Origin: Clostridiales bacterium
Lineage (GTDB): Bacteria > Bacillota > Clostridia > Lachnospirales > JAISER01
Assembly (NCBI GenBank): GCA_031263985.1
Contig: JAISER010000011.1
Coordinates: forward strand, 1-35,634
DNA length: 35,634 bases
Direction: 5' to 3'
A program made the position numbers and the translations under genes. Position 1 is the stretch's first letter. The number at the start of each line of letters is the position of its first letter. This document shows, in pieces, positions 1 to 21,225 of the stretch. The notes under the pieces were generated by a model. That model was not told the origin of the DNA. It saw nothing but the letters and a program-made list of their open reading frames with translations, and made no database searches.

Positions 1-23
1 AGCTTTAACACATTGCCTTCCAT
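1..23 (-). CDS. Start of an unidentified gene running off the left edge
   Basis: Reading leftward on the minus strand, an ATG at 21-23 opens the frame M-E-G-N-V-L-K before the window ends. A GGAGGA ribosome site (30-35) lies six bases upstream, which makes the start convincing although only seven codons are visible. It follows the acyl carrier protein gene in the same direction, with a stem-loop between them, so it may be the next gene of that cluster, perhaps expressed through an attenuator-like terminator. The product cannot be named from seven residues. Confidence 0.55.
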
Positions 24-29
24 ATATAA

Positions 30-35
30 TCCTCC
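30..35 (-). promoter_or_regulatory. Ribosome binding site of the left-edge gene
   Basis: GGAGGA on the minus strand, six bases before the ATG at 23. It is the main evidence that a gene begins at the edge of the window. Confidence 0.6.
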
Positions 36-42
36 ATCTATA

Positions 43-87
43 TTAAAGAAAGAAGACATAGATACTGTAAGATGTCTTCTTTCTTAA
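43..87 (-). terminator. Stem-loop after the acyl carrier protein gene
   Basis: Nearly perfect inverted repeat: TTAAAGAAAGAAGACAT at 43-59 pairs with ATGTCTTCTTTCTTAA at 72-87, with a loop of 12 bases. On the minus strand the 3' arm is T-rich and ends in TTTCTTTAATAT, so it fits a Rho-independent terminator or attenuator between the carrier protein gene and the gene starting at 23. Both arms are A/T-rich, so it could act in both directions. Confidence 0.6.
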
Positions 88-105
88 TAATATTAATTAT
101 AAAAT

Positions 106-375
106 TCACTGCTGTTGACTTAGTTTATGTTGGACCAAATTCATGATAACTTCAATTGTTCTGAAATTTTCCGGTTTAAATTCTTCGTCTGTAATTTTAA
201 TTTTGTACTCATCTTCCAAATGAGCCATCAATTCGGTAAACCCTAGAGAATCAACGCCAATATCATTGCCAAGACTCGCTTGTTCTGAAATGTCCGCTGG
301 AGACAGATCAATCAGCAACTCATCCACAAGAAAATCCTTCAATTCCTTAGCAATTTGCTCATTTGTAACTTTCAT
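106..375 (-). CDS. Acyl carrier protein (phosphopantetheine carrier)
   Basis: Small acidic four-helix carrier of 89 residues that holds an acyl or aminoacyl group on a 4'-phosphopantetheine arm. The attachment motif G-V-D-S-L-G is intact, with the serine at residue 43. I place the start at 375 rather than the upstream ATG at 381: GAGGAG (384-389) is 8 bases from the ATG at 375 but only 2 from the one at 381. It lies 24 bases downstream of the metallo-hydrolase gene and is followed by a stem-loop. Because it sits with an MFS exporter and a YrdC-like protein rather than with fab genes, I infer a dedicated carrier for a small specialised pathway rather than the housekeeping AcpP. The ligase or synthase it would serve is not in view. 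Confidence 0.85.
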   Translation of the reverse strand: MKVTNEQIAKELKDFLVDELLIDLSPADISEQASLGNDIGVDSLGFTELMAHLEDEYKIKITDEEFKPENFRTIEVIMNLVQHKLSQQQ

Positions 376-399
376 ATACATTTCTCCTCTTCTTTAATT

Positions 400-1086
400 T
401 TAAAATCTAAAAACATCTTCATATTGCATAACTGTCGCATTTAGGCCAGCGTCTGACATCCTCTTTTTCCATACTTCTACGTCTTGCTTTATAATGTCAA
501 ATGTATTATAGTGTATCGGTATATAATTTTTTGCTTTTAATAGTTTTGCGGCAACTATAGAATCACTAATATCCATAGTAAAATTTCCACCTATCGGTAA
601 CGCCACAAAATCGAAGTCATACATATTTCCGAACATCTCCATATCGCCAAAAAGACCGGTATCACCGGGATGATAAATTAATTTATCCTCGATATTTATT
701 ATAAAACCTACTGGCATGCTATAACTGAGGACTTCATTCATTTCAACGCCTATTCCATGCAACGCTTGGGTCATTTTAACTTTGCCCCAATCAAATTGAT
801 AAGAGCCGCCTATACTCATTGGATGAATTTTAACCGTCTTATCTTTACTCATAAAGTGTTTACCTAATTCATCAATTACTATAATCGGGCATTTACTTCT
901 AGTAGCGATCTCAAGCGCATCACCCACATGATCCATATGCCCATGTGTAACTAGGACAGCGCTCACATGAATATCCGCGACTTTTATCTTGTTTTGCGGG
1001 TTAGAACTTAGAAATGGGTCAATAATTACGCTATTGTCACTTGATTCAATAAGTAAACATGAATGACCTAAATACTTGATTATCAT
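400..1086 (-). CDS. UPF0173-type metal-dependent hydrolase (metallo-beta-lactamase fold)
   Basis: 228 residues, the usual length for the UPF0173/UlaG-like group of single-domain metallo-beta-lactamase-fold hydrolases. The metal motif is complete: T-H-G-H-M-D-H (His48, His50, Asp52, His53), then His110, H-P-G-D-T-G (His139, Asp142) and P-I-H-Y (His192). The strong site GAGGAGG lies a few bases before the ATG. The substrate cannot be told from sequence; relatives include lactonases and uncharacterised hydrolases. It is the gene before the acyl carrier protein, so a thioester, lactone or ester product of that pathway is a reasonable guess. It is separated from the MFS gene upstream by the inverted-repeat element at 1126-1290. 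Confidence 0.85.
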   Translation of the reverse strand: MIIKYLGHSCLLIESSDNSVIIDPFLSSNPQNKIKVADIHVSAVLVTHGHMDHVGDALEIATRSKCPIIVIDELGKHFMSKDKTVKIHPMSIGGSYQFDWGKVKMTQALHGIGVEMNEVLSYSMPVGFIINIEDKLIYHPGDTGLFGDMEMFGNMYDFDFVALPIGGNFTMDISDSIVAAKLLKAKNYIPIHYNTFDIIKQDVEVWKKRMSDAGLNATVMQYEDVFRF

Positions 1087-1125
1087 TTAAATTCCTCCTC
1101 GTCGATTATGATAATTAATAGCCTA

Positions 1126-1290
1126 AGAGCCTGTTCAAGATCTCGCTTTTAGCGGATTTTTGTGATGATTTTTCGCCAAACGCGGAAGCGCGAACGCCGC
1201 GTATTCGAAGAATATACGCAAGTGAACGCTGACAAAGTGTGGCGGAAAATGAGCCGAAAAGACGCAAAATGGAGATCTTGAACAGACTCT
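1126..1290. mobile_element. MITE-like element, copy A (full length, 165 bp)
   Basis: Both ends carry a 19-base inverted repeat, AGAGCCTGTTCAAGATCTC at 1126-1144 and its complement with one mismatch at 1272-1290. There is no open reading frame. The interior has a palindromic core (CGTATTCGAAGAATATACG). The same sequence recurs at 5206, 31246, 31867 and 33060, in both orientations. It sits between two genes of one operon. Its right end provides two bases of the TAG stop of the MFS gene. No clear target duplication is visible. A non-autonomous transposable element is the best reading; a folded mRNA-processing element cannot be excluded. Confidence 0.75.
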
Positions 1291-2488
1291 AATTGCTCAA
1301 ATTGCTTAAATCTTTTGGCATTTGCAATTTGAAACTCTTTTTGTAGAAAAGCAAAATTAGAATTAAGTACATTAATACGAAACTAACCATCAATGTCTTA
1401 AATCCAAAAAATGTTAGTATTAACCCTCCTGACAATAACAAAAGAGCATTCCAAAACCCATAATTTTGTTCCATCGACGACAATATTTTGGTTCTTTGAA
1501 AGTTATTCATTTCTTTTTTATTTATGTTTGCCATCGTGATGGGTCTGACTCCACCAGACGCAAGTCCTAATAGGCTTATATTAATTACGCTTATTAGCAG
1601 GTTGTTTGAGAAGCAAAACACCATTAAACCTACTATTAGAAGACAAGATGTAACAACCGTTAGTTTCTTATAGCCCCATGATTTTTCTAGCTTTACAATA
1701 ACTCTTGATGAGAGAAATCCAAATAAGTTGAATAAGCTTAAAATAGCGCTAAAATAATATAGGTTCACATCAACAACGATAAAAAAATAATATGGCAAAA
1801 ACCCTACGAATGTCGCTAATGTGAACGCCCTTGATAGCGCATAATAATTTTTCCAAAAGAATATTGTCTTATCATTAACAAGTCGCTCTTCGTCGGAAAC
1901 AGTTTCTATAACCGTCGCTATTTTGGTTTCTGTAATTTCAGAGGTGTCATTGATTAATCTTGCGCTAATTAACGATAGCATATTAGCGAATATGGAAAGT
2001 AAAAATACTAACCTTGGGTCTATTTTAAAAATGACGCTACCTAATACGCCCGCAACTAAAAAAGATATAAACATGTAACTGTTAGATTTTGCTTCCACTG
2101 CTTTATACTCGTATTTATCTTCTTCATATGTATCAGACAGCTTCCTTAACAAGCTAGAATCGGTTCCTGCCGTCAAGCTATAACCCAATCCTGATAATAT
2201 TTGCCCTATTGCCAAAATCCAAACATCTTTCGTCACAACAAAACAAATTAACCCAAACGCTTTTATCATTTCTCCTACAATTAGCGTTATTTGTTGTTTG
2301 TTCTGATTTTTAAATTTCTTTGTAAATTTAGGAGCAAAGATTAGCGTAATGCCATAAACAGCCAGTAAAAGTTCTATTTCCCAAACAGACAACCCTACAG
2401 TATAGAAATATACGAATAACATGGGTACGTGAAAATACATCCTTGAAAATATCCGGTATAAATAAAAGAATACAATTTTTTTCCTCAT
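1289..2488 (-). CDS. MFS transporter
   Basis: 399 residues, strongly hydrophobic throughout, with a pattern of about twelve membrane segments and a central cytoplasmic loop near residues 180-205 (rich in E, T and K), as expected for a Major Facilitator Superfamily permease. A positively charged G-x-x-x-x-K/R-x stretch between helices 2 and 3 (F-A-P-K-F-T-K-K-F-K) is consistent with the family's loop signature. AAGGAG lies about 11 bases before the ATG. It starts 24 bases after the YrdC-like gene, so the two are probably cotranscribed. The substrate is unknown; a drug- or metabolite-exporter role is inferred from the operon. The TAG stop is formed at the junction with the repeat element: without it the frame would read three more residues (L-G-Y) to a TAA. 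Confidence 0.8.
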   Translation of the reverse strand: MRKKIVFFYLYRIFSRMYFHVPMLFVYFYTVGLSVWEIELLLAVYGITLIFAPKFTKKFKNQNKQQITLIVGEMIKAFGLICFVVTKDVWILAIGQILSGLGYSLTAGTDSSLLRKLSDTYEEDKYEYKAVEAKSNSYMFISFLVAGVLGSVIFKIDPRLVFLLSIFANMLSLISARLINDTSEITETKIATVIETVSDEERLVNDKTIFFWKNYYALSRAFTLATFVGFLPYYFFIVVDVNLYYFSAILSLFNLFGFLSSRVIVKLEKSWGYKKLTVVTSCLLIVGLMVFCFSNNLLISVINISLLGLASGGVRPITMANINKKEMNNFQRTKILSSMEQNYGFWNALLLLSGGLILTFFGFKTLMVSFVLMYLILILLFYKKSFKLQMPKDLSNLSN

Positions 2489-2512
2489 AAATATCGCAAC
2501 TCCTTGTATAAC

Positions 2513-3169
2513 TTAATTCCCTATTTTACATTCCCTGTTAATAACGTCTTCTATCTCTTTTTTAGAAATATCGCCCAGTCTTAGTATTGTAGGCTCATCA
2601 GTTAAATCAATGATTGTACTTGAAATTGTAGTGCCCGTTGATTCTCCTCTCAATATATAATCAACTTTTTCTCCAACTTGTTCTACCGCTAAATCAAAGT
2701 TAACTAACCTTCCATTCGCTTTACCAGACAAATTGGCGGAGGTCATCGCAACAGGCATTTTTAATTTTTCCATAAAGCCTCGCCACACAGGGTTTTTTAA
2801 ACAACCCATTGCAATCGTATCTCCACCGCATACCAAGGCATCAGAAACAGTGTCTTTTTTCCTTAAAATAATATTGAATGGCCCTGGCCAAAAAGCGTTT
2901 ATTAGAAGTTGGACGCTTTTTTTATCATCGCTTGTCGCATAGTCCACCCATAAATTGGTTTCGTAAAAGAAAAGCGTTAGCGGAGATGTAGCCGGCCTAT
3001 TCTTTATCTCAAAAGTTCTTTTAATAGCTTCATCATCCCAAGGATTTAGCGTTAGCGCTATATTCGTGTCGCTAGGGGCAATGATAACGCCTCCATTCCT
3101 AACGCACTCCGCCGCTATCTGGAAATTTTTTTCTGTCGGTTGAATAATTTTTTTTGAGATATCATTCAT
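2513..3169 (-). CDS. YrdC/Sua5-family protein, divergent
   Basis: 218 residues with the YrdC/Sua5 fold signature: P-S-D-T at 32-35, E-I-K-N-R-P at 54-59, and M-T-S-A-N-L-S-G in the second half. Family members make threonylcarbamoyl-AMP for the t6A modification of tRNA; related domains supply carbamoyl-adenylate in antibiotic carbamoylation. Here the canonical P-T-D-T-x-Y-G-L motif reads P-S-D-T-N-I-A-L, so the substrate pocket is altered, and there is no C-terminal Sua5 domain. With an acyl carrier protein, hydrolase and exporter downstream, a specialised paralogue is more likely than the housekeeping tRNA enzyme. It is the first gene of the operon. The start at 3169 lies 15 bases from the AAGGAG site, while a five-codon frame begins at the better-spaced ATG (3179). 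Confidence 0.75.
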   Translation of the reverse strand: MNDISKKIIQPTEKNFQIAAECVRNGGVIIAPSDTNIALTLNPWDDEAIKRTFEIKNRPATSPLTLFFYETNLWVDYATSDDKKSVQLLINAFWPGPFNIILRKKDTVSDALVCGGDTIAMGCLKNPVWRGFMEKLKMPVAMTSANLSGKANGRLVNFDLAVEQVGEKVDYILRGESTGTTISSTIIDLTDEPTILRLGDISKKEIEDVINRECKIGN

Positions 3170-3179
3170 ATTTATTCAT
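3162..3179 (-). promoter_or_regulatory. Five-codon upstream frame overlapping the YrdC-like start
   Basis: ATG at 3177-3179 is five bases from AAGGAG (3185-3190), reads M-N-K-Y-E and stops at TGA (3162-3164), which overlaps the ATGAATGA start of the YrdC-like gene. A ten-base tandem duplication (AATATGAATA / AATATGAATG) appears to have produced the two ATGs. It could couple or reduce translation of the operon's first gene; this is inference. Confidence 0.35.
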
Positions 3180-3214
3180 ATTAACTCCTTCCACAATATT
3201 TTAATATGAGATCC

Positions 3215-3243
3215 ATTATACCAAGTTTTTCTATATAACCAAA
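3215..3243 (-). promoter_or_regulatory. Promoter of the YrdC-MFS-hydrolase-ACP operon
   Basis: On the minus strand a perfect TATAAT (3215-3220) is preceded by TGG, giving an extended -10 box. A weak -35 (TTTGGT, 3238-3243) is 17 bases upstream. It lies about 45 bases before the first start codon. Confidence 0.5.
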
Positions 3244-3397: not shown

Positions 3398-3690
3398 TGG
3401 ATACGGGGCTTGCAGCAATACGATGAAGTAAAAGGCATACAATGGGAATGGCAAAGTATGATGGAAGCAATGTAAAAGCGCCGTTAGCGCAAGAGGCTGT
3501 TAGAGCAAATCCGACTGAACGTGGGTAAAAACGGAAGTGAAAGACACCACATTCTGGTCGATGGAGCGAGCGTTCCCTTATCACTTGTACTAACAGGAGC
3601 TAACCGGCGCGATGTTACACAACTTTTTCATGGCTCAATCGCTTTCGAAAAATTCTTGTCAGATATGAAAAATATGACTATTCTTATTTA
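3398..3690 (+). pseudogene. IS5-type transposase fragment, frameshifted
   Basis: Read in shifting frames, the plus strand gives Y-D-E-V-K-G-I-x-W-E-W-Q-S, then K-A-P-L-A-Q-E-A-V-R-A-N-P-T-E-R-G, then G-S-E-R-H-x-I-L-V-D-G and V-P-L-S-L-V-L-T-G-A-N-R-R-D. This is the central part of IS5-family DDE transposases, including the L-V-D-G-x-x-x-P-L segment. At least two frameshifts and a TAA interrupt it, and both ends are missing, so it is dead. It lies between the ACP operon promoter and the LysR gene. Confidence 0.8.
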
Positions 3691-3851: not shown

Positions 3852-4763
3852 ATGGTCGATATCAATCTTTATAAAATATTTTATACTGTTGCGACAACAG
3901 GTAATATTTCAAAAGCTTCCGAAATATTATTTACAGGTCAACCCTCTGTCAGTAAATCAATAAAAAAACTTGAAAGTGAACTAAAAGTGAATCTATTTAC
4001 TAGAAACTCAAGAGGGGTGCGTCTTACAGAAGAAGGTAAAATATTATTTGAACACATTGCAAGCGCTATGGATACGATTAATACTGGTGAACTTGCTATT
4101 AAAAAAGTAGTTGATAAAGATTCCGGACAAATCAAGATAGGTATAAGCGCTACATTGTATAAGTATTTCTTATTGCCCTATATAAAACAATTTCTTACAG
4201 AATTCAAAAACTTTAGCGTTGAAATCATCGATAACAGTACCTCTTATATTACACTAGACCTTATTACAGAAGAAAAAGTTGATATCGGGATAGTCAGTAA
4301 ACCTTTTACATTGCAAGATGTAGAATTTGTCTCAATAGGGCTTATCGAAGAAATATTCATTGCAGAAAAAAATTTTATTTGCGCTTATGATAACTTTGAC
4401 AACCTTCAGGATTTTTTTAATCAAAATACATTTATTTTTCTTGAGAAAGGAAATATCACAAGGGATTATAATGAGCGATTTCTTAAACAAATTGGCATTA
4501 CCGTTAAGCCTGATATAGTAACAAGTAATATGGATTTTATAATTGATTTAGTAAAAGTAGGGGTAGGGTTTGGGATAGTATTTAAAGAAGTAGTTAAAGA
4601 AGATCTCGAATCGAAAAAGTTAATTGAATTGGATTTTATTCAACCTATCCCTAAAAGAGAAATAGGCATTGTCTGCAAAAAAAACAAACAAAAATCAATT
4701 GCCCTTCAAGAATTTATTAACTACTATAAAAATATATATGATTATCGACATAACATACGTTAA
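3852..4763 (+). CDS. LysR-family transcriptional regulator
   Basis: 303 residues, the standard LysR length. The N-terminal winged helix-turn-helix (residues 1-60) carries the family pattern S-K-A-S-E-I-L-F-x-x-Q-P-S-V-S-K followed by L-E-S-E-L and L-F-x-R. The rest (about 90-295) is the two-lobed ligand-binding domain. GGGGAA precedes the ATG by about six bases. It is transcribed away from the ACP operon, the usual layout for a LysR regulator of a divergent operon, but an IS5-type wreck of about 300 bases now lies between them, so the link is only suggestive. The effector is unknown. Its low-GC codon use matches the island genes to its left. Confidence 0.88.
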   Translation: MVDINLYKIFYTVATTGNISKASEILFTGQPSVSKSIKKLESELKVNLFTRNSRGVRLTEEGKILFEHIASAMDTINTGELAIKKVVDKDSGQIKIGISATLYKYFLLPYIKQFLTEFKNFSVEIIDNSTSYITLDLITEEKVDIGIVSKPFTLQDVEFVSIGLIEEIFIAEKNFICAYDNFDNLQDFFNQNTFIFLEKGNITRDYNERFLKQIGITVKPDIVTSNMDFIIDLVKVGVGFGIVFKEVVKEDLESKKLIELDFIQPIPKREIGIVCKKNKQKSIALQEFINYYKNIYDYRHNIR

Positions 4764-10410: not shown

Positions 10411-13400
10411 TTATAACAACGCGGCCACTAAATCGACAAAATTATCATAATCTTCAAGAGAGTCAACTGACTCGTTTTCAACAGGTTCTCCAACCGGCGA
10501 TCCGTTTTGTTCCGTTATCAGCCCGTCAACTTCCTCCGCTGTCTGGATATTAGCTTCAGCGGCTCTCGCTAATTCAATTCTTCTGGCTTCTTCATATGTT
10601 TCAATATCTTCATAATTCGTCGAAGCTTCCATTATGTCCTGATACGCCCAGTGAGTCCTGTTAATATCCGTATATAAACTGGCCGCTCGGTCAACGCCCT
10701 CACTGTCGATAGAACGATTAAGCACTTTATTTATTATAGATATGACCTGAGCGCGGCTTACAAATTCATTCGAACCAAACGTTCCGTCTTCCGTCATGTC
10801 AAACCATCCGTTAGCGACAGCGGCGTTCACATAAATTGATTCCCAGCTGTTCTCAGTTATGTCCGCAAACGAAGCGTCTTCATAATCGTCATTAATCTCT
10901 CCGAATGAAACCGCCACTTTAGTAATTTCGGCTTTCGTCACCGGTTGGTCCGGTCTGAACGTGCCGTCTTCATAACCGTTAAGTATTCCGTGCGCTTTCA
11001 AATATGTCACCGCGTCGTGGTACCATACGCTCGAGTCTACGTCAGTAAACTGATTGCTGTACCGCTCGTTTTTATCTGTGCTTATTACAAGACTGTAAAA
11101 TACGCTCGCCACTTCCGCTCGCGTTATAGTATCGTCAGCCTTTATCGTGCTGTCCGGATATCCATATACAAACCTAACGCGTTTACCTGTCAGAATCGGC
11201 GGGCTTAACGGTATCTCTTCGTTCGCTAAATTTACTCCATAATTCTTCGGCCCGCCGTAAGACGGCGCATTATTCACTTTCTTAAAATAGAAATCAATAG
11301 GATCGTTATCCATCTGCAACGTTATAACGCGTAATATCGGTCGTCCTTTGTTCAATGCCGCGTCATAAGACCATCCGTCGCTATTAAAACCGATCGAATC
11401 CGGGCTTACTTCTATCGTTTCTCCCACACGTCCCGTAAGAAGCCCGTAGGCAAGCTTTGTAGACTGTCTGCCGTCAACGCCTATTACCGTCACCATAACA
11501 TACGTGGTATCTGGCTCTATATATAAGAATTCTTCTACCTTACCCTCGCCATACGTAAAATTAATAACCCTTCGGCTAGGATCTTTAAGCGTCAATCCAG
11601 CCTGTTCCATCTTATCGTTATTATTGTTGTAATTGACGACTATCGAACCCGCGGTTCCATATTCGCCAAGCAACTTCTCGGAGTAAGACGGAGCTTCGCC
11701 TTCCTTGGTCCAGTTGACTGTCATTCCAGGTCTGTCCGAGTCAAACTCATAAATAAACTTAACGCTGCCAGCCGAGCCAATCGTCGTGTTTACCGTCGCG
11801 GCGCTTGTCAGTTTATAGCCTACGGCTATCAACAGATCTTCATAAATCTCCAATGTATCGGGGTTTTGAAAATTGCTGTTAATAGTCAACGGACTGTCTT
11901 TCTGTCCTTCAAACGTATAGCTGTAACGAACCGTTTCAACGCCTGACAGGTTTTTAACGACCCATTCAGCCCTTTTCACGTCGTCCTCTCTCACATAAAC
12001 AAAGTCTTCAACTATGCCGTCACCGTACGTGAAATCAATCGTCGTTTTCGACGGATCTTTGGGCACCCATCCTTGCGCTCTCAAATCAGTATCATGGTTA
12101 TTATAATTAATCGCTACCGAAGCCGGCAAACCGTTCTCGCCGTAAAAAGGCTCATCATACTCTATCGGACTCGGGTCGCCTTCTTTAATCCAGCGAATCC
12201 TCTTGAGCGTCTTTGGAGAAGTCGTATCAAGCTCATAAATAAACTTAGCGTTCTCACGCAAGCCAATCTCAATCTCCATCGGAGACGCGCTTGTCAACTC
12301 ATAACCTTTACTCTTTAACTCATCATCATAATTTAACCCCGTAGCCGGATCTATGTCATTGTGCACAACATCTATCTTTTTTCCTTTTAAATCCGTATAT
12401 GTGCGAACAAAACGCGGATTTTCCTCTACAACGCCTTTAAGGTCTTTCACATACCAGCCTACTATTCTTTGGTTATCCGGGTCCGCTATGTCGATTTCAT
12501 ACACAAACTCAATACGCTGCGTTCCATCGCCGTAAATAAACGTTACATTCGGCTGCGTAGTAGCCTTAGGTATCCATCCTGCCGCTTTCAACAACACGTC
12601 ATGACCGCCATCAGTGATGTTTACCGTTTGGGACGTTCCGTTTACACCTGTCAGCGTTTCTTCCGCATAAAGAGGTACTGGATCGCCTTCCTTCACCCAG
12701 GCAACCGTTACGGTCTCCTGGCGCACATACACAAACTCGCCAACCACGCCGTCACCGTAAGTAAACTGTATCTCTGTCAGCGTAGGGTCTTTAGGCGTCC
12801 ACCCCAAAGCTCGCAATTCCGTATCATACCCAAAATCATCAATCCCTACTGTCCCGGCCGTTCCATGCTCACCTACCAGCGTTTCCGTATAAGCTGTTCC
12901 AACGCCTTCCTTAACCCAGCGAATCTCTTTTTTGTTCCCGTCCACATCACGCAACTCATAGACAAATTCCACTTCAAAGTCTGTACCGTACGTACCCGTC
13001 ACCGAAGCCGGGGAAGTCAGCTCCCAATAGTCTTTATCAATGACTGCGTCACCGTTTTCGTAATCTTCGTTAATCGTGAATGGAAGGCCAGCGACGCCGC
13101 TATCTGTCTTTCTATTGACTTCAATTTTCACGCCATTGATTTGTTTGAACCATCTTACTATCACGTCCGCGTAGTCGGCCCTGCGCCATATTGAATACAC
13201 AATAGTATGTGTCATTATTTGCGCGCCTTCATTAGGTGAATATGATTGCCCCATAGCATTTGGAAACACTGGCGCTTCGGCATCATCCCAGGCCGTATTC
13301 CAACTGTGAAATACCCAGACAGGTTGAATTGCCGGCAGCGTATCTCCTGATCTAAGAGCAACATCCGTGTACTCCTTAAAATAGTATGACCCAGTAGCAG

Positions 13401-16400
13401 GGTCATGCATATCCGGCAAAGACATAACATAGTCATACTTATCGTCCGGATTCACAACCACATAATAGACATTACGTTCCGATGGCGGAGGACCTGAATC
13501 ACGTACGAACTTAGCCTCCACAGTCAATCCTATGCTACCTTCTGGCGTCAGTTCTCTAAGCGTCTTTCCACTCGGTCCTTCATCATATACGGTTCTAGTA
13601 CCATACATTCGCCATCCATCAAATTTATACCCTGGCGGTAGAGAAAATCCCGTATCCGTAAAATCCAAAAAAGTGTAAGGCTCATCCTTATCCTTTGTGT
13701 CGGTTACAAATACCGTTTGTTCACTATTATCCCAGGGCCATCTAATATATAACGCCTGTATGTCATTCGAAATTACTGTCCCTTTAAATTGCGGATAAAG
13801 AATCATTGAATGTTCCGCCGTTATATCAGAGCCAGGCGCATATTGTTCTCCCGTACCCGCTATATTTTCCGTCCAATAAGCCAATATAGCGTTCGCGGGA
13901 ACATTTACGCCAGTGGCGTCAGCCCCACGTATTGTATACGTGGAGCCGATCGCTACGGCATTGTCGGTAACATCTGGGTTGTCATTAAGATTATCATACG
14001 AAATACTAACTGTCGTAGGGGCGCCGAACGTTATGCCGGATTTAAGCGCGCTCATAAACTGAGAGGCTGAAAACGCAAGCTGCGGCGCTCCATATTTAAG
14101 CTCAAATATCGCGTATAGGTCAATTTTTTTATCTACCTTTATTACATCTCCCGGCTCATAGACTATAGCTTCTACATTGGTAAAGTCTTTAGCCATATCT
14201 TCATCAGTAGCCCATCCCGCTAATATATAAGTCATAAACATATAAGAAGGAGTTTTAAACCCTACATCATCTAAACCAAGAATAGTATATTCGCTGCCTT
14301 CTTCGACTCTGTCACTGAATGTGTCCTCGCTTTCATACTTACTAAGATACGTAACATCCAGTGACCCCTTTGCGTAAATATTAAAATTAGGAACCAATGT
14401 CATCCCGTCGTAAAACTCTGCTGTACTCACCATGTCTCCAAATTTGTAAATCTTTCCGTTTGACGCTTCCCATCCTGTAGCTTCCCTAACTCCATCCATA
14501 ATTTTCGTTTTAAACATTTCCTCATCAGAGGGAATCTTGTAATAAACATCCTTATATACACCATCAATTATTCCTTGAAAACCCGATACGCCACCATATT
14601 CTATATATATCCTACTACCGCCAACGTGGCCTGTTTTTATATTAAATGCAATGTCTCCATATTGATCAAACAACGATTGCTCTAAGCGTTTTCCAGGCAC
14701 AAACCAAAGCGTCTCGCCATCATCATCAAGAACTTTTGAATATTTTATTCCACTGTCCTCAATTAACTCAATTCCATTTGGGTCTTCCTTATATAAGTAC
14801 CAACCCTCAAAAGAATTATCTTCAAAATCTTTCGCGACCAAGACTTCGTCCGTAATATTTCTTGTATAATAGCCTGGTATTACCCCTACATCAGCATATT
14901 GTTTATCGTTATCACTATCATAATATGTTACAGTATATCTCGGCCCTGAATACGGCTGCCATATCGAATAAAGCGTAATATCCTCGTGACGCATGTAGAT
15001 TGTGTCCTTTTCCTTAAGAATCTCCTCAGGGTACTCTTCCGTTCTCCACCCAAGGAAGGTCTCGCCGGTTCTCGGTACCATACTGCCCTGTCCTAACACC
15101 GTTATGGGCTTACTGACAAAATAGTTGTTGTCGTCAACGGGAGCTTCTCCTCTTTCATGGTTTTGCGCGACATATATGACCTTATGCGTTTCGCTCGGGT
15201 CAGGAATATCGCCCCATGACGCGTAAAGCTTCACTTGAACCGGATTGACAGCCGGGTCATTAAGCGTCTTGTCGTCAATTATGATTACTTCGCCGACCGC
15301 TAAAACGTCGCCTTCGTTCGGTTTAAGAGTCCATCCTTTAAAGTCATATTCTGGATTTCCAAATTTCAACCCGCCGAGTAACGTGGCCGTTTCGCCATAT
15401 GCAAAAGTCTTTTCCGTCCCATCCGGATTTTCATGCTTCGGAGCTTCTCCTTCGCCGCCGTTCAAGTCATATACGACTTTGTAGGTTTCACCCTCGACTG
15501 AGTCCCAGACAGCGTACAATATTACCGTTCTGTTTACAGTAATCTCAGTTAAGGCGGGAAGAGCGTCTTCCACAGCGGTCTCCGCCATATAGCCCCATCC
15601 CACGAACTTATGACCTACCCATCTCATCCTGCTGTCGCCTACGTTATCCTTCAGCGGCGCTTTTTGTCCGACGCTATACAAGTTCGGATCTTCCGGAGCT
15701 TCACCAATGACATCGTAGCCGTTCTTACGGTATATAACGCTGTACAGATTCGTGTCGCGCCGCCATACGGCGTACAGCGTAGCCGTTCTATTTTCTGTGT
15801 TGCTGTCATTTATGTGGAACTCATCGCCCTCGATGTAAGACGCGATAACAGCGTTTTCGTCAAAGCTCCATCCCTCAAACACATGCTCATCCATGATTAA
15901 ATTGGCGCTTTTCACGATAACCTTGTCGTTGTAATTATATTGCGTTATGTCATACGGGAAATCTCCCTCAAACGTAACTGCTTTACCCTTTCCGTTCAGG
16001 TCATAGACTACGTTAAATTTTGTTTCGTAGTCAAATTTCCACACTGCGTACAGGTTGAAATTGTCTTCGATGTATATTGAATCATTTTCAACGTAATCCG
16101 GAACGGTCGCCGCCGAGTTTCTGGCCCATCCGAGGAAGCGATACATGTAGACCCACATAGTGCCCTGACCGGGAGCTTCTATTGCAGCGCCATACAAGCG
16201 GCTCTGCGCCGCAGGGGCGTCTCCACCATGGTCGTCATCTGAAATATTCTCCGGGATGTTCGGCAAGAACGTCACCGTGTAGTTTTCGTCAACCTTTTCC
16301 CAAGCGGAGAAAAGAACGAGATTTTTGGTCATTTTAACTGGTTCACCGGCCAGGTATACTTTCTGCCCAGGTATCGGCAGATCTGTCCAGCCTGTGAACT

Positions 16401-19400
16401 TGTAGCCCTCGCGATGTAAGGTTTCCCCGCCCAAAAGCGTAGCTCTTTCGTTGTGGCGATACAGCTTCGAATCCACCGGAAGAGCGCCTTTCACATCACT
16501 TACCGCGTTGAAGTAGTACACACTATAAGTATCAGTCTTTTCTTGCCATACCGCGTAGAACGTTATGTCATGCGTTACTCGTATTTTCTGAGTCGGGAAG
16601 TATTCCGGGAATAGCGCATCCGGATCTTCGCTCCATCCCCAAACCTCATACCCGATTTTCTCAAGGTCTCCATAGCCTTCAACCGTATAGGACTCGTTAT
16701 ACAAGATGCCCGTCTTTTCTTCCGGAACCGTTCCGTCTCCGCCATTGGCGTCATATCTGACGGTATAAGGCCCGTTGTCATCGACTACCCATTGCGCTAC
16801 AAGCGTGTCATTATCTTTTATTATAAATTCGCTGTTTAGGCCGTACGTGGAACCGTCCGAAGCAGCGCGCCAGTTCACGAACTTATGACCTTCATTCACA
16901 AGGTTTACAGGCTCTGCGACGGTAAAATTGTCACCCGCGACACCCGTATGCGGTGGCGGAGGGGTCCCCTTTACATCTCCGGCTCCGGGGGCGTAGCTCA
17001 CGGTGTAGAGCGCGTCGTCACGCTCCCAAACGGCGTACAACACAAGGTCAGCGTCTTCTATCCGAGCCTGGTCTCCCGCCACATATTCTTGAACATCGGC
17101 GGAGGGATCTTTCGCCCATCCAAGGAACTTGTGTCTTGGGTTGTGGATATACTTGCCGTCAAGCACTGTAACGAGAGCGAAGTTTTTATAAAGCGTGGCG
17201 TCATACGGAGGAATTCCGATTCCGCCGTTCAAACGGTAAAGGACTGAATATTTATTTGTATCAACTTCCCAAACGGATACAAAATTGACGTCCGCTCCGT
17301 CGATAAAAGATCTATCGCCTTCGCTGTAAACCTTTCCGTCAGCCATGTCTTTCCATCCGGCGAATTTATAGCCGTCGGATTCATAGTCGTCGTATTTATA
17401 CAAAGTCCCTCTGCCCGCGATTACAAATCCTTCTCCGTTTTGCAATCCTTGAAGGCTGGCAGGAGGAGTTCCATCGGCTCCCGCAGCGCTGTAATTTACT
17501 GAGTAACGCGTCGGGTCCAGGATCCACACTGCGTATAAGTTTACGCTGCGCGTAATCGGCTTCAACGCGTCGCCTTCTTGATAGTCCGCTAATACAGCGC
17601 TTCTGGCCGTAGCCCATCCGCCAAATTTATTCCCTTCGAGGATCATCGTACCTTTGCCTAAAACGACAGGCTCGTCGCCTACAGCGTAAAGGTTGTCGTC
17701 TACCGGAACCGCGCCTCCTGAAAGAATGACGCCCGCGTTATACTTGACAACGTACTGCGGCGGGTTCGGTTCCCATACGGGATACAGAGTAATAGGGTTC
17801 GGGCTGTCCTCGTAAATCGTAAACACCGCGCCAGCCGGAAGTAATTCGAAGTTTTCGGTTCCCGGATCTTCCGTCACATACTCCTGGTCTCTGCTCCATC
17901 CCTTAAATAGATAACCGCCCTGCCTGAACAACGAAGCCGGTTGCACCGTCACTTTGTCGTAAACGCTGTATTGCTTCGAATCCGTCGGAACATCTCCGGC
18001 CGTCTTGCTTCCTCCGTCATAAACCACTGTATAAACATCGGAAGACAGCTCCCAAGTAGCGAAAAGCACGGTGTTTTCTCTGATGCGGAACGTTTCGCCC
18101 AAATTTATGTCGGCCACGACATTCGTCGAATCGTAACTCCAACCCAACAAGATATGGCCTGGTCTATTAAAATCCTTTCTATCCGGATTCGGCGTCGTTA
18201 TAAGAGCGTTATAAATGCCTCTTCCTGACGGAACGTTTCCAACGCCGCCGTTAGCGTCATAAGTTACGATATATTCCTTCGGGTCCGCTTGCCATATCGG
18301 AACAAACGTCTTATCTTCCTTAATAGGGAATGTCGATCCTACGCTGTAAGGGGTTCCGGTCGCGCTATCTTGCCAACCGACATGCCTGGAACCGACTTTT
18401 ACGTACGGATCAGTTGGATTGTTCTCTAAAACAGTAACGATCTCATTGTATTTATATGGGTTGTTCGGGTCCACCGGAGGCGATCCTACTCCCGGTTCAG
18501 CGTCCGGACCTCTGTCGTAAGCGACATTGTAGGCTGAAGGGTCATCCATCCAAACGGCGTACAGTTCTTTATCCTCGTTAACTTTACGCTTATCTCCCGC
18601 TTTATAAGAAGCGGTCGTCGCATTCTGGTCTTCATCCCATCCTTCAAATGTCTTTCCTGGGTTTATCATCAAGTCGCCATCGTTACCTTTAACAGTAATT
18701 TCAGTGTGTTTATCCAAATTAACGTGCGGCTCGGGAACTGTTCCCGTCGCTCCGTTCAAATGATAATACACGTTAACTTTTCCGGCGGTTTGCCACAACG
18801 GATACAGCGTGACGTTAACCGTAACCCTCTTGCTTGGGTCTACCGGCGTCGATCCTCCCTCTGTTTCCGTCCATCCGCCAAAATCATGTCCCTCTCTTTG
18901 CAGATTTCCCGTATTGCTTGGAAGAGGTATGAAATCGTTGTATTTGACCGTTGCCGACGCCGGCGCGGTTCCCGAAGTCGAGCCTGAACTCGAATATGTT
19001 ACCGTCACGTCCGCGACCACGTTCCATTTAGCGTAAACTGTAGTCGGATCGCTTTCTACATATATATAATCTCCAACCGCTTTTAACGGTCCCGTAACGG
19101 AGCCAACCGTCCATCCTCCGAACTGGCTGCCTTCTTTTATCAGCGTGTTCTCGTTTTTCAAAACCGCTTTTTCCGAATAACTGTAAGCTTCGTCCGGATG
19201 CGGCGTTCCGATCTCAGCTCCATTTCCGTCGTATTTCAAAGTATAGGCGCCCGGCTTGTTAAGATGGTTCCACTGAGCGTTTAAAACCTTATCGGACTGT
19301 ATATAGAACTTATCGCCGGCGGCGTACTCTTCGGTCCCCGACTTCCATCCGGAAAACTCGTTATCAATTTTCCTTAATTTTTCAGGAACTCCGTCATTAT

Positions 19401-21225
19401 CGCGTACAGTGACTTCTTCATCATAGGCGTATGTTTTCGCGTCCGCCGGAGGAGAGCCATAATCGGCGCCATTCCCGCCATACGTCACCTTAAATCCGTC
19501 GCCAGTCCTATCCAACCACACCGGATACAGATTCAACGGCTTGTCGATAGCCTTATCGTATCCTATAGCGTAATATCCTGAACTTTCCGGATGCGGACGC
19601 GTGATGGCGATTTCTCCTCCTACGGTCTCCGTCCATCCTATCAGTTCGTAACCTTTTTTCACCAATCTGCCGACATGGTCGTTAGCCGCCGGACTAAACG
19701 GATTCGTCGTATTTATGACTTCACTGTCGGGAGGAACGCCAGAATCCGCGCCATCTCCGTAATAAACGACGTCAACGTCATCATATTCCCACTGCGCCTT
19801 CATATACGTAACATAGTAATATTTACCATCACCAGTAGGCCCTAGGTGCACCAGAGGCGTTTCTCCCTCGCCGGGCTTAAACAAATGACCGCTATACAAT
19901 TCCACTAAACTGCCGTCTATATCCACATATAACTTCCAACCCAAAAACCTCTTACCAACTGGCGACACGGTATCCGGGGTCAAATATTCAAAACCATCGC
20001 TCGGCCTGAAAGTAAAGCCGTAGTCGTTAATCAATCCTTTCACGTCAACAGTTGGTATCGACCCTATAGTTTCAGGAAACATCTTCAAAGTATTATGGAC
20101 TATAAACCGATACTTGTCGGTCTCGTATTCATCCACAGCGAATACAATTCTTGGTTTACCGAAGACCTCGTTCGGACGTTTCCATTGAGCGTAAAGAATT
20201 ACGTTCGATTGCAAATTTATTATATCTCCCGGCTGAATTAACTTGTCAGGGTTCTCCTCATATTCATCATAAGCCCATCCAACAAAGTCATATGGCTTGC
20301 CGCTCAACGTCGAAACCTTAAATTGAAAATCGTCAGGAGATTGAACAAGGTAATCTCCCTCTTCCAACCGCTGAATCATAGGCCAATTTTTATCGTTGTC
20401 GTCAAGCATTAGCTTCGAACCGTACGTCACGGAATATGTAGTCGGCCCGGTACCTCTATACTGGGCGTACAATATTAAAGTAGTTGGCGAAGTCATGTCA
20501 AACGTTATCTCGTCTCCTGGATAATAACGCTTGTTATCATTCCTGCCTTCTATATCCTCCAACGTTGTGCTCCAGTGAACAAACTTGTAATCCGGCGGAG
20601 CCGTCCACCCAAACTCGGTAAAAGATTTAATGATTCTCGTTTCATTTTGCTTGATGCCAGCTACGCGGTACTGTTCGTCGCCTACTCCGATCAGATAGAA
20701 CATCGTATGATTGCCAGAAGGAGCTCCAAAACTTAGCGCTGTCGGCGTCGGGTCAAATTCCCACTGCGCGTAAAGCTGCATATTTGAATCAAGCGTAATC
20801 GTTTCACCGGGCAGATATTGATTCCCTTGCCCGTCCTGGCTGTCGCTCCACCATGTTAGTTTTAAAAACTTACGTTCAATTCCAATCTCCTTTGTGTCTT
20901 TTATTACATAATACCCGTCTTCACCTTCCGCAAAATCCAGCGTTTCTTCCGCTCCGTCGTTAGTATTGTAATATACGCCATACAAAGACGGTCTGTCCAC
21001 ATGTACAAGTTCCTCGTCGGCAGCCTGAACTTCTCCGGGTCCAGCAACAGCATTCTCCACTTCATATCCCGAAACATTTTCGACAGATTTAACGGATTTC
21101 ACAACCGAATTTAACGCCCCATTATCCGCTTCGCTTGCAAACGTAACGTTAACGCAACCTAACGTCGTCACAACCGCCAAAATCATCGAAATCAGTCTGT
21201 CAATAAATTTCTTTGTGATTCTCAT
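10411..21225 (-). CDS. Giant secreted SLH-anchored surface protein (3604 residues)
   Basis: A signal peptide (K-K-F-I-D-R then a hydrophobic core, likely cleavage after T-F-A near residue 30) is followed by about 28 repeats of 60-100 residues, roughly residues 55-2680. Each ends like F-x-G-W...Y-x-x-G-D-x...L-Y-A-V-W, the InlB B-repeat/Flg_new (Listeria-Bacteroides) type. Then come about eight MucBP-like modules (2685-3325) of two alternating kinds, one opening W-V-K-E-G and the other W-x-V-K-x-L. Last are SLH domains (about 3350-3540: R-A-E-V-A-S-V-F-Y, G-Y-E-D-G-T-F-R-P-D, W-A-Y-Q-D-I) and an acidic tail. SLH domains bind pyruvylated wall polymer, so the protein should coat the cell and project repeats for adhesion or scaffolding. 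AGGAGG precedes the ATG by five bases. The repeats have diverged at DNA level, so they are old. No catalytic domain is visible. Confidence 0.9.
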   Translation of the reverse strand: MRITKKFIDRLISMILAVVTTLGCVNVTFASEADNGALNSVVKSVKSVENVSGYEVENAVAGPGEVQAADEELVHVDRPSLYGVYYNTNDGAEETLDFAEGEDGYYVIKDTKEIGIERKFLKLTWWSDSQDGQGNQYLPGETITLDSNMQLYAQWEFDPTPTALSFGAPSGNHTMFYLIGVGDEQYRVAGIKQNETRIIKSFTEFGWTAPPDYKFVHWSTTLEDIEGRNDNKRYYPGDEITFDMTSPTTLILYAQYRGTGPTTYSVTYGSKLMLDDNDKNWPMIQRLEEGDYLVQSPDDFQFKVSTLSGKPYDFVGWAYDEYEENPDKLIQPGDIINLQSNVILYAQWKRPNEVFGKPRIVFAVDEYETDKYRFIVHNTLKMFPETIGSIPTVDVKGLINDYGFTFRPSDGFEYLTPDTVSPVGKRFLGWKLYVDIDGSLVELYSGHLFKPGEGETPLVHLGPTGDGKYYYVTYMKAQWEYDDVDVVYYGDGADSGVPPDSEVINTTNPFSPAANDHVGRLVKKGYELIGWTETVGGEIAITRPHPESSGYYAIGYDKAIDKPLNLYPVWLDRTGDGFKVTYGGNGADYGSPPADAKTYAYDEEVTVRDNDGVPEKLRKIDNEFSGWKSGTEEYAAGDKFYIQSDKVLNAQWNHLNKPGAYTLKYDGNGAEIGTPHPDEAYSYSEKAVLKNENTLIKEGSQFGGWTVGSVTGPLKAVGDYIYVESDPTTVYAKWNVVADVTVTYSSSGSTSGTAPASATVKYNDFIPLPSNTGNLQREGHDFGGWTETEGGSTPVDPSKRVTVNVTLYPLWQTAGKVNVYYHLNGATGTVPEPHVNLDKHTEITVKGNDGDLMINPGKTFEGWDEDQNATTASYKAGDKRKVNEDKELYAVWMDDPSAYNVAYDRGPDAEPGVGSPPVDPNNPYKYNEIVTVLENNPTDPYVKVGSRHVGWQDSATGTPYSVGSTFPIKEDKTFVPIWQADPKEYIVTYDANGGVGNVPSGRGIYNALITTPNPDRKDFNRPGHILLGWSYDSTNVVADINLGETFRIRENTVLFATWELSSDVYTVVYDGGSKTAGDVPTDSKQYSVYDKVTVQPASLFRQGGYLFKGWSRDQEYVTEDPGTENFELLPAGAVFTIYEDSPNPITLYPVWEPNPPQYVVKYNAGVILSGGAVPVDDNLYAVGDEPVVLGKGTMILEGNKFGGWATARSAVLADYQEGDALKPITRSVNLYAVWILDPTRYSVNYSAAGADGTPPASLQGLQNGEGFVIAGRGTLYKYDDYESDGYKFAGWKDMADGKVYSEGDRSFIDGADVNFVSVWEVDTNKYSVLYRLNGGIGIPPYDATLYKNFALVTVLDGKYIHNPRHKFLGWAKDPSADVQEYVAGDQARIEDADLVLYAVWERDDALYTVSYAPGAGDVKGTPPPPHTGVAGDNFTVAEPVNLVNEGHKFVNWRAASDGSTYGLNSEFIIKDNDTLVAQWVVDDNGPYTVRYDANGGDGTVPEEKTGILYNESYTVEGYGDLEKIGYEVWGWSEDPDALFPEYFPTQKIRVTHDITFYAVWQEKTDTYSVYYFNAVSDVKGALPVDSKLYRHNERATLLGGETLHREGYKFTGWTDLPIPGQKVYLAGEPVKMTKNLVLFSAWEKVDENYTVTFLPNIPENISDDDHGGDAPAAQSRLYGAAIEAPGQGTMWVYMYRFLGWARNSAATVPDYVENDSIYIEDNFNLYAVWKFDYETKFNVVYDLNGKGKAVTFEGDFPYDITQYNYNDKVIVKSANLIMDEHVFEGWSFDENAVIASYIEGDEFHINDSNTENRTATLYAVWRRDTNLYSVIYRKNGYDVIGEAPEDPNLYSVGQKAPLKDNVGDSRMRWVGHKFVGWGYMAETAVEDALPALTEITVNRTVILYAVWDSVEGETYKVVYDLNGGEGEAPKHENPDGTEKTFAYGETATLLGGLKFGNPEYDFKGWTLKPNEGDVLAVGEVIIIDDKTLNDPAVNPVQVKLYASWGDIPDPSETHKVIYVAQNHERGEAPVDDNNYFVSKPITVLGQGSMVPRTGETFLGWRTEEYPEEILKEKDTIYMRHEDITLYSIWQPYSGPRYTVTYYDSDNDKQYADVGVIPGYYTRNITDEVLVAKDFEDNSFEGWYLYKEDPNGIELIEDSGIKYSKVLDDDGETLWFVPGKRLEQSLFDQYGDIAFNIKTGHVGGSRIYIEYGGVSGFQGIIDGVYKDVYYKIPSDEEMFKTKIMDGVREATGWEASNGKIYKFGDMVSTAEFYDGMTLVPNFNIYAKGSLDVTYLSKYESEDTFSDRVEEGSEYTILGLDDVGFKTPSYMFMTYILAGWATDEDMAKDFTNVEAIVYEPGDVIKVDKKIDLYAIFELKYGAPQLAFSASQFMSALKSGITFGAPTTVSISYDNLNDNPDVTDNAVAIGSTYTIRGADATGVNVPANAILAYWTENIAGTGEQYAPGSDITAEHSMILYPQFKGTVISNDIQALYIRWPWDNSEQTVFVTDTKDKDEPYTFLDFTDTGFSLPPGYKFDGWRMYGTRTVYDEGPSGKTLRELTPEGSIGLTVEAKFVRDSGPPPSERNVYYVVVNPDDKYDYVMSLPDMHDPATGSYYFKEYTDVALRSGDTLPAIQPVWVFHSWNTAWDDAEAPVFPNAMGQSYSPNEGAQIMTHTIVYSIWRRADYADVIVRWFKQINGVKIEVNRKTDSGVAGLPFTINEDYENGDAVIDKDYWELTSPASVTGTYGTDFEVEFVYELRDVDGNKKEIRWVKEGVGTAYTETLVGEHGTAGTVGIDDFGYDTELRALGWTPKDPTLTEIQFTYGDGVVGEFVYVRQETVTVAWVKEGDPVPLYAEETLTGVNGTSQTVNITDGGHDVLLKAAGWIPKATTQPNVTFIYGDGTQRIEFVYEIDIADPDNQRIVGWYVKDLKGVVEENPRFVRTYTDLKGKKIDVVHNDIDPATGLNYDDELKSKGYELTSASPMEIEIGLRENAKFIYELDTTSPKTLKRIRWIKEGDPSPIEYDEPFYGENGLPASVAINYNNHDTDLRAQGWVPKDPSKTTIDFTYGDGIVEDFVYVREDDVKRAEWVVKNLSGVETVRYSYTFEGQKDSPLTINSNFQNPDTLEIYEDLLIAVGYKLTSAATVNTTIGSAGSVKFIYEFDSDRPGMTVNWTKEGEAPSYSEKLLGEYGTAGSIVVNYNNNNDKMEQAGLTLKDPSRRVINFTYGEGKVEEFLYIEPDTTYVMVTVIGVDGRQSTKLAYGLLTGRVGETIEVSPDSIGFNSDGWSYDAALNKGRPILRVITLQMDNDPIDFYFKKVNNAPSYGGPKNYGVNLANEEIPLSPPILTGKRVRFVYGYPDSTIKADDTITRAEVASVFYSLVISTDKNERYSNQFTDVDSSVWYHDAVTYLKAHGILNGYEDGTFRPDQPVTKAEITKVAVSFGEINDDYEDASFADITENSWESIYVNAAVANGWFDMTEDGTFGSNEFVSRAQVISIINKVLNRSIDSEGVDRAASLYTDINRTHWAYQDIMEASTNYEDIETYEEARRIELARAAEANIQTAEEVDGLITEQNGSPVGEPVENESVDSLEDYDNFVDLVAALL

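What the first reader, a model, noticed from the sequence alone, without database searches (positions are those of the whole stretch)
1..3243. Compact operon of YrdC-like, MFS, metallo-hydrolase and lone acyl carrier protein
A carrier protein outside a fatty-acid locus, next to an exporter, a UPF0173 hydrolase and a divergent YrdC protein with an altered threonine-pocket motif (P-S-D-T-N-I-A-L), is an unusual set. YrdC domains make carbamoyl-adenylates, which in antibiotic pathways feed carbamoylation. The set could build, modify and export a small acylated or carbamoylated metabolite. The next gene, at the left edge, may be the ligase or synthase.
Basis: partly seen in the sequence, partly recalled or inferred. 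Interest (0 to 1): 0.55.

Follow-up and report, generated by a model that had tools for sequence, protein, structure and literature searches.

The report
Metabolite cluster with spare tRNA-modification enzyme
This is the end of a gene cluster for an unknown small molecule that carries an altered extra copy of a universal tRNA-modification enzyme next to an exporter, a pairing that recurs in distant bacteria and may protect the producer from its own product.

Summary
The four genes are real and exactly placed. The ACP is of the AmcB/Cfa1 type (cispentacin/coronafacate-like type II PKS), so the unassembled left flank probably holds the rest of such a PKS. The YrdC is not the housekeeping copy: a full Sua5 lies elsewhere. 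It belongs to a separate TsaC branch that has lost an Arg invariant in 26 of 26 other copies and gained Asn36, yet keeps the ATP site. A search with the MFS alone found 19 loci in several phyla; 18 of 19 carry this YrdC in the same cluster, with AmcB-type PKS, aconitase-like LeuC/LeuD, homocitrate-synthase-like or dioxygenase genes. Paenibacillus curdlanolyticus has PKS, YrdC, MFS and MBL; two relatives lack the PKS gene tested but keep YrdC, MFS and MBL at the same site, one beside a decayed cluster regulator. Best reading: YrdC, MFS and MBL form a self-protection and export module of a biosynthetic cluster. Rival: YrdC is a biosynthetic adenylating enzyme. The product and the action of YrdC are not shown.

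The parts
1..23 (-). start of the next gene (M-E-G-N-V-L-K...), cut by the contig end; probably the next PKS gene
   Evidence: RBS and ATG read directly; the window is the whole contig
22..105 (-). intergenic hairpin after the ACP stop; weak terminator or attenuator
   Evidence: -19.4 kcal/mol, z -2.64, 3 of 200 shuffles as good
106..381 (-). acyl carrier protein of AmcB/Cfa1 type (motif GVDSLGFTELMAHLEDEY)
   Evidence: NF058660 84.3 bits, cut-off 80; only one of 392 order genomes and one of 391 class genomes over cut-off, both times the own genome; 53% to the Skermanella cluster ACP, 44% to Cfa1; alignment
400..1086 (-). UPF0173 metallo-beta-lactamase-fold hydrolase (MBL)
   Evidence: NF001911 247.4 bits, cut-off 144; the same gene follows this MFS in L076-L079, 44-48% identity
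1126..1290 (.). palindromic MITE-like insertion between the hydrolase and MFS genes
   Evidence: 40 near-full copies including itself, all 40 scored of 315 first-look candidates
1289..2488 (-). MFS exporter of the YrdC-linked subfamily
   Evidence: PF07690 43.1 bits; tblastn in plasmids finds 2 records only; 1 of 398 genomes of the phylum, the own one, at E<=1e-40
2513..3169 (-). variant TsaC/YrdC (PSDTN motif, lost invariant Arg)
   Evidence: PF01300 127.4 bits, TIGR00057 137.2 bits; tree, site table and model
3852..4763 (+). divergent LysR-type regulator, possible regulator of the operon
   Evidence: Pfam HTH_1 and LysR_substrate; a divergent LysR also flanks the S. aureus and Lachnospiraceae YrdC-MFS operons

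Best explanation
The window begins inside a biosynthetic cluster whose core is an AmcB-type non-canonical type II PKS; the ACP is its carrier and the rest lies in the unassembled left flank (shown for the ACP, inferred for the flank). YrdC, MFS and MBL are its self-protection and export module: the MFS pumps the product out, the MBL perhaps hydrolyses it, and the variant YrdC, which keeps the ATP site and most threonine-site residues but has an altered pocket, stands in for or shields the cell's own TsaC/Sua5 against a product that resembles a TsaC substrate or intermediate (inferred). Within 'protection', an insensitive spare TsaC is slightly preferred over an enzyme that modifies the product.
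For: ACP of AmcB type. The window YrdC's best plasmid hit by far (54.6%; next 39%) is in the same Skermanella cluster that gives the best ACP hit. P. curdlanolyticus: YrdC, LeuD, LeuC, a second MFS and the PKS genes to ACP, then PaaX, MFS and MBL. Its relatives L077 and L079 lack the one PKS gene searched genome-wide (3 of 21 hit) but keep YrdC at one border and MFS+MBL at the other; L077 still holds a decayed PaaX, so loss is likelier than gain there. YrdC is conserved between producer and L077 (dN/dS 0.029 against 0.084 for MFS and 0.092 for MBL). All 19 host genomes carry at least two PF01300 copies, and 18 of 19 have a copy on the canonical branch. ATP residues K56 and R58 are kept in 23 of 23, S143 in 22, N145 in 23; threonine-site R195 in 23, S181 in 18, T33 as T or S in 22 (roles from PMC10321239 passages).
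Against: The Arg present in 26 of 26 other TsaC/Sua5/YciO copies is lost in 23 of 23 cluster copies; a spare TsaC that must still make TC-AMP would hardly give up an invariant residue, which speaks for a changed substrate. HypF, which makes a different carbamoyl-adenylate, also lacks it (0 of 3). Seven loci hold a second divergent YrdC, more like catalysis. In S. aureus and L085 the pair sits with a synthase gene. Only one PKS gene was searched genome-wide in L077 and L079; LeuC/LeuD and the other PKS genes were checked only in the fetched flanks. dS is near saturation. Own assembly: no orthologue of the cluster KS (best 34-38%) or of the oxidoreductase, so the PKS is either unassembled or gone.
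Confidence: 0.45

Rival explanations
1. The variant YrdC is a biosynthetic enzyme: it adenylates a product precursor (an amine carbamate, or a carboxylate shaped like N-carboxy-threonine), and the MFS exports the product.
For: It lies in clusters with several different cores in several phyla; its pocket changed in a fixed way (Arg lost, V36 to N, one change each on a tree built without those columns); second YrdC paralogues occur in seven loci; the ATP site is intact.
Against: YrdC+MFS+MBL persist in two Paenibacillus genomes without the PKS gene tested; Halobellus has a YrdC of the branch without MFS or visible biosynthetic genes.
Confidence: 0.32
2. One reading: YrdC makes carbamoyl-adenylate for carbamoylation of the metabolite.
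For: YrdC-like domains do this in TobZ, GdmN and HypF; HypF and the variant share the lost Arg.
Against: No Kae1-like acceptor enzyme in the clusters read; PF02543 gives no full match in the own genome, the S. mucosa plasmid, P. curdlanolyticus or S. stibiiresistens; fold closest to Sua5/TsaC2; R195 kept in 23 of 23.
Confidence: 0.06
3. The own genome carries only a remnant: the protection genes plus a stranded ACP, with no working PKS to the left. (This concerns the state of this copy, and can be true together with the best explanation.)
For: The oxidoreductase and an orthologous KS are not in the 2.1 Mb assembly; the L077 and L079 precedent; a MITE sits inside the operon.
Against: Assembly about 90% complete; the contig ends inside a new same-strand gene with a good RBS, and the ACP is intact.
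Confidence: 0.2
4. Ordinary chance neighbours: a housekeeping YrdC, a drug pump, a UPF0173 hydrolase and an ACP.
For: Each family is common on its own.
Against: Sua5 elsewhere; separate branch; 18 of 19 loci.
Confidence: 0.02

Closest known systems
Cispentacin / coronafacic acid type II PKS-like clusters (amcB-H, cfa1-5; PMC10698177)
   Same: AmcB-type ACP in the window; the Skermanella relative has AmcF-like KS (322.4 bits, cut-off 325), AmcG-like (36.7, cut-off 80) and AmcH-like (241.3, cut-off 370) proteins.
   Different: No aminotransferase (AmcC role) among the annotated Skermanella cluster genes; AmcE model only 19.9 bits (cut-off 140); adds SDR, FabI-like, oxidoreductase, LeuC/LeuD, YrdC and MFS. 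A find in that paper gave 0 occurrences of 'transporter' and 'resistance'.
TsaC / Sua5 threonylcarbamoyl-AMP synthases
   Same: Fold (TM up to 0.89 to Sua5), ATP residues, R195, TsaC-type Thr at 138.
   Different: Invariant Arg lost, V36 to N, no SUA5 domain, extra to the housekeeping copy.
S. aureus LysR (SAOUHSC_00913) locus with leuA2-like, YrdC, MFS and YbhB genes
   Same: Divergent LysR, variant YrdC and the same MFS subfamily.
   Different: No ACP or PKS; has a 2-isopropylmalate/homocitrate-synthase-like gene and YbhB. Only the LysR has been studied in what I read (PMC7448277, one section).
Self-resistance by a duplicated insensitive target in biosynthetic clusters (general principle, recalled)
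   Same: Extra, divergent copy of a universal enzyme beside an exporter, kept where the cluster gene tested is absent.
   Different: TsaC as the target is not described in the titles and abstracts that my searches returned.

Membership tests
Canonical TsaC/Sua5 | ATP-site KxR / SxN | tested here: met
   K56, R58, S144, N146 in the window; 23/23, 23/23, 22/23, 23/23 in cluster copies
Canonical TsaC/Sua5 | threonine-site T33 / S181 / R195 | tested here: met
   window S33 (T or S in 22 of 23), S184, R197 (roles)
Canonical TsaC/Sua5 | invariant Arg of the VAVRMP strand, and V36 | tested here: not met
   Arg 26/26 in canonical plus YciO-like copies, 0/23 in cluster copies; N36 in 22/23
Canonical TsaC/Sua5 | makes TC-AMP | not testable with these tools
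   needs an enzyme assay
YciO | KxR/SxN lost | tested here: not met
   window keeps all four; YciO-like rows lack R58 and N145 in 7 of 7
TobZ/HypF-type carbamoyltransferase | Kae1-like transferase domain fused or nearby | tested here: not met
   218-aa single domain; own genome only a 58-position partial PF02543 match
AmcB-type ACP | NF058660 above cut-off | tested here: met
   84.3 against 80; Skermanella 87.6
Cispentacin-type cluster | amcB-H set | tested here: inconclusive
   window cut after the ACP; in Skermanella only AmcB passes its cut-off and AmcF misses by 2.6 bits
UPF0173 hydrolase | NF001911 above cut-off | tested here: met
   247.4 against 144
Self-resistance gene | kept without the biosynthetic genes | tested here: met
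   L077 and L079, limited to one PKS gene genome-wide plus the flanks
Self-resistance gene | confers resistance | not testable with these tools
   needs product and strain

The most novel reading that the evidence does not exclude
These clusters make dicarboxylates of succinate type that are carbon isosteres of N-carboxy-L-threonine, the enzyme-bound TsaC intermediate, and so poison the universal t6A tRNA modification; the linked variant TsaC is the insensitive copy (or turns the isostere into a stable TC-AMP mimic). The different cores would converge on one shape: AmcFG-like PKS (cyclopentene-1,2-dicarboxylate) and homocitrate/isopropylmalate-synthase plus LeuCD chemistry (3-isopropylmalate has the same heavy-atom skeleton as N-carboxythreonine).
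Probability: 0.13. Interest if true: 0.92.

Novelty: new variant of a known kind. Interest (0 to 1): 0.6.

Why it matters
If YrdC is a protective copy, clusters in Firmicutes, Proteobacteria, Actinobacteria and cyanobacteria, and an operon in S. aureus, point to natural products aimed at t6A synthesis, a universal pathway for which none of the titles and abstracts my searches returned names a natural inhibitor. If instead it is biosynthetic, it is a new use of the TsaC fold as a stand-alone adenylating enzyme. Either answer is directly testable with laboratory strains, and the YrdC-MFS pair is a simple handle for finding such clusters.

Tried and rejected
Housekeeping YrdC: rejected. YciO: rejected. 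Carbamoylation: weak. PKS on own contigs C60, C66 or C113: their KS are only 22-38% identical to the cluster and Cfa KS, so not the missing genes. Finding the neighbouring contig by overlap: window 1-105 matches itself, its own inverted repeat and short stretches only. ACP scan of genome contigs and YrdC and MFS scans of viral contigs: no relatives. More copies in the order, class or phylum: none besides the own genome over cut-off or at E<=1e-40. Other plasmid YrdC hits opened (Priestia, three Streptomyces): no MFS neighbour of this kind. L088: no YrdC seen in its fetched DNA, though the same genome has another YrdC-MFS pair (L129). L090: MFS 27%, YrdC off-type and on a long branch; counted among the 18 but doubtful. 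Papers: searches returned no title or abstract describing a YrdC-MFS cluster; they cover open-licence PMC only. PMC9290621 lists yciO among duplicated core genes of one Streptomyces (passage).
Full report
What is there. The window is the whole of contig C10 of a 2.14 Mb, 124-contig genome about 90% complete. The left edge cuts a further minus-strand gene that starts at position 23 behind a GGAGG site; a hairpin (z -2.64) lies between it and the ACP. A MITE-like element, of which all 40 scored candidates in the genome are near-full copies, sits between the hydrolase and MFS genes.

The ACP. It passes the NCBIfam model of AmcB, the cispentacin ACP (84.3 bits, cut-off 80). Of 392 genomes of the order and 391 of the class, only the own one has a match over that cut-off (the two sets share some genomes). 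Among plasmids its best match is an ACP of Skermanella mucosa (53%), then Cfa1 of Pseudomonas syringae (44%). The motif VDSLGFTELMAHLED is shared with the Skermanella and Paenibacillus cluster ACPs but not with the two other own ACPs aligned, from C50 and C60.

The Skermanella cluster reads ACP, thioesterase, KS, oxidoreductase, FabA/Z-like, SDR, FabI-like, unknown, KS-like, adenylate-forming ligase, YrdC, HlyD, MFS. Against the cispentacin models (cut-off in brackets) it scores AmcB 87.6 (80), AmcF 322.4 (325), AmcG 36.7 (80), AmcH 241.3 (370) and AmcE 19.9 (140). So it is related to, but not, a cispentacin cluster. In the paper on cispentacin, clusters with only amcB, F, G, H homologues are called minimal type and are expected to go through the ACP-bound cyclopentene dicarboxylate (PMC10698177, section 9 and parts 1-2 of the text).

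The YrdC-MFS pair. The window YrdC is 54.6% identical to the Skermanella cluster YrdC; the next plasmid hits are 39% (Halobellus) and 35% (S. aureus). The MFS matches only 2 of 72,556 plasmid records, Skermanella and S. aureus, and both have the YrdC beside it or one gene away. A scan of genome contigs with the three MFS proteins gave 46 pattern matches and 19 loci. Of these 19, 14 have the variant YrdC within about 1.5 kb of the MFS and 3 within 7 kb; in P. curdlanolyticus (L076) it lies about 12.5 kb away at the other end of the cluster; L088 shows none in its fetched DNA. One of the 14, L090, is off-type.

Partners differ. In one search, 14 loci have LeuC/LeuD-like genes (a 15th, L076), 10 YbhB, 6 homocitrate/isopropylmalate-synthase-like genes, 7 HlyD, 5 the UPF0173 hydrolase (the window included), and 3 besides the window the AmcB-type ACP with PKS (L059, L076, L081; counts over the window, the 19 loci and the plasmid loci clustered there). 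A TauD-like dioxygenase was found by Pfam in 5 of the 6 loci tested (L084 was the miss). A second divergent YrdC occurs in 7 loci, and three of these also have a haem-oxygenase-like protein.

Not the housekeeping enzyme. The own genome has a 349-aa Sua5 on C3. All 19 host genomes have at least two PF01300 matches (some are HypF or YciO). In the tree 20 of 21 cluster copies form one branch (support 82/73, so modest), apart from 19 canonical and 7 YciO-like rows; three HypF rows were left out, not every copy was put in, and 18 of the 19 host genomes are represented on the canonical branch. Site table: the ATP residues are kept, R195 is kept in 23 of 23, S181 in 18 of 23; V36 is Asn in 22 of 23; the Arg that is present in 26 of 26 canonical and YciO-like rows is absent in 23 of 23. 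On a tree built without these columns each change needs a single step. Residue roles are from passages of PMC10321239; the role of the lost Arg I did not find. The AlphaFold model (17 rows, mean pLDDT 94) matches Sua5 and TsaC2 structures best (TM 0.87-0.89), HypF 0.69, TobZ/GdmN about 0.5.

Loss of the cluster, survival of the pair. In P. curdlanolyticus the order is YrdC, LeuD, LeuC, MFS2, ligase, KS-like and the other PKS genes to KS, thioesterase, ACP (all minus), PaaX (minus), then MFS and MBL (plus). Paenibacillus sp. MMS18-CY102 (L077) and P. kobensis (L079) have the same flanking genes but only YrdC (minus), then MFS and MBL (plus). A cluster oxidoreductase is found in 3 of 21 genomes or records searched and not in these two. 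In L077 the space between YrdC and MFS holds a decayed, internally deleted PaaX. So in that lineage the cluster was probably lost while its two outer borders stayed. YrdC between producer and L077: dN 0.029, dS 1.02; the other YrdC pairs are saturated at synonymous sites (pN/pS 0.14-0.15); dN/dS of MFS and MBL for the same pair 0.084 and 0.092; of the neighbours DisA and RadA 0.010 and 0.003. This is the main ground for reading YrdC+MFS+MBL as protection. It is not proof: only one PKS gene was sought genome-wide.

Mechanism. A protective YrdC could be an insensitive spare TsaC, or could modify the product. The lost invariant Arg argues that the ligand differs, which fits modification or a biosynthetic role at least as well; hence confidence 0.45 for protection and 0.32 for biosynthesis. 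The chemical idea in the section on the most novel reading is inference: PDB entries 9dsv and 9d3h are titled as TsaC2 with N-carboxy-L-threonine, and the cores of these clusters are of families that make 1,2-dicarboxylates or act on their kin.

S. aureus. The same pair with a leuA2-like gene and YbhB lies next to a LysR gene (the record is labelled a plasmid but holds clpB, fabH and fabF, so I take it to be chromosomal; that this LysR is SAOUHSC_00913 rests on recalled gene order, and agrees with the clpB neighbour named in PMC7448277). Work on that LysR (PMC7448277, one section read; PMC8510525, passages) does not name a product in what I read.

Limits.

Noticed in passing
window 1126-1290: Palindromic MITE-like element; all 40 scored of 315 candidates in the own genome are near-full copies, 86-100% identical.
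   Followed up: partly
window 3470-3670: Fragment resembling an IS5-type transposase (my reading of the sequence, motif recalled) between the YrdC operon and the LysR gene.
   Followed up: no
L030 (own contig C60) 1921-18579: Another type II PKS-like cluster: several KS, FabH-like, FabG, FabZ-like, ACP and 2-hydroxyacyl-CoA-dehydratase-like subunits with an activator (names by eye; KS and ACP).
   Followed up: no
L032 (own contig C66, contig coordinates 23834-26272): 812-aa protein with two ketosynthase domains in one frame, near an ACP, FabG-, FabZ- and FabD-like genes and ABC transporters (some names by eye).
   Followed up: no
own contig C26 14660-21052 (L035, L036): 3134-aa frame with three PP-binding domains, probably an NRPS.
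   Followed up: no
window 10411-21225: 3604-aa secreted-type protein made of many repeats, with S-layer-homology-like repeats at the C-terminus (by eye).
   Followed up: no
L078 2602-11918: Bacillales cluster with two different YrdC-like proteins, haem-oxygenase-like protein, homocitrate-synthase-like, citrate synthase, amidohydrolase, LeuC/LeuD, MFS and UPF0173.
   Followed up: partly
L070 12001-12639: Archaeal (Halobellus) plasmid YrdC with the PSDTN motif, without MFS, beside glmM/glmS and a VapC toxin gene.
   Followed up: no
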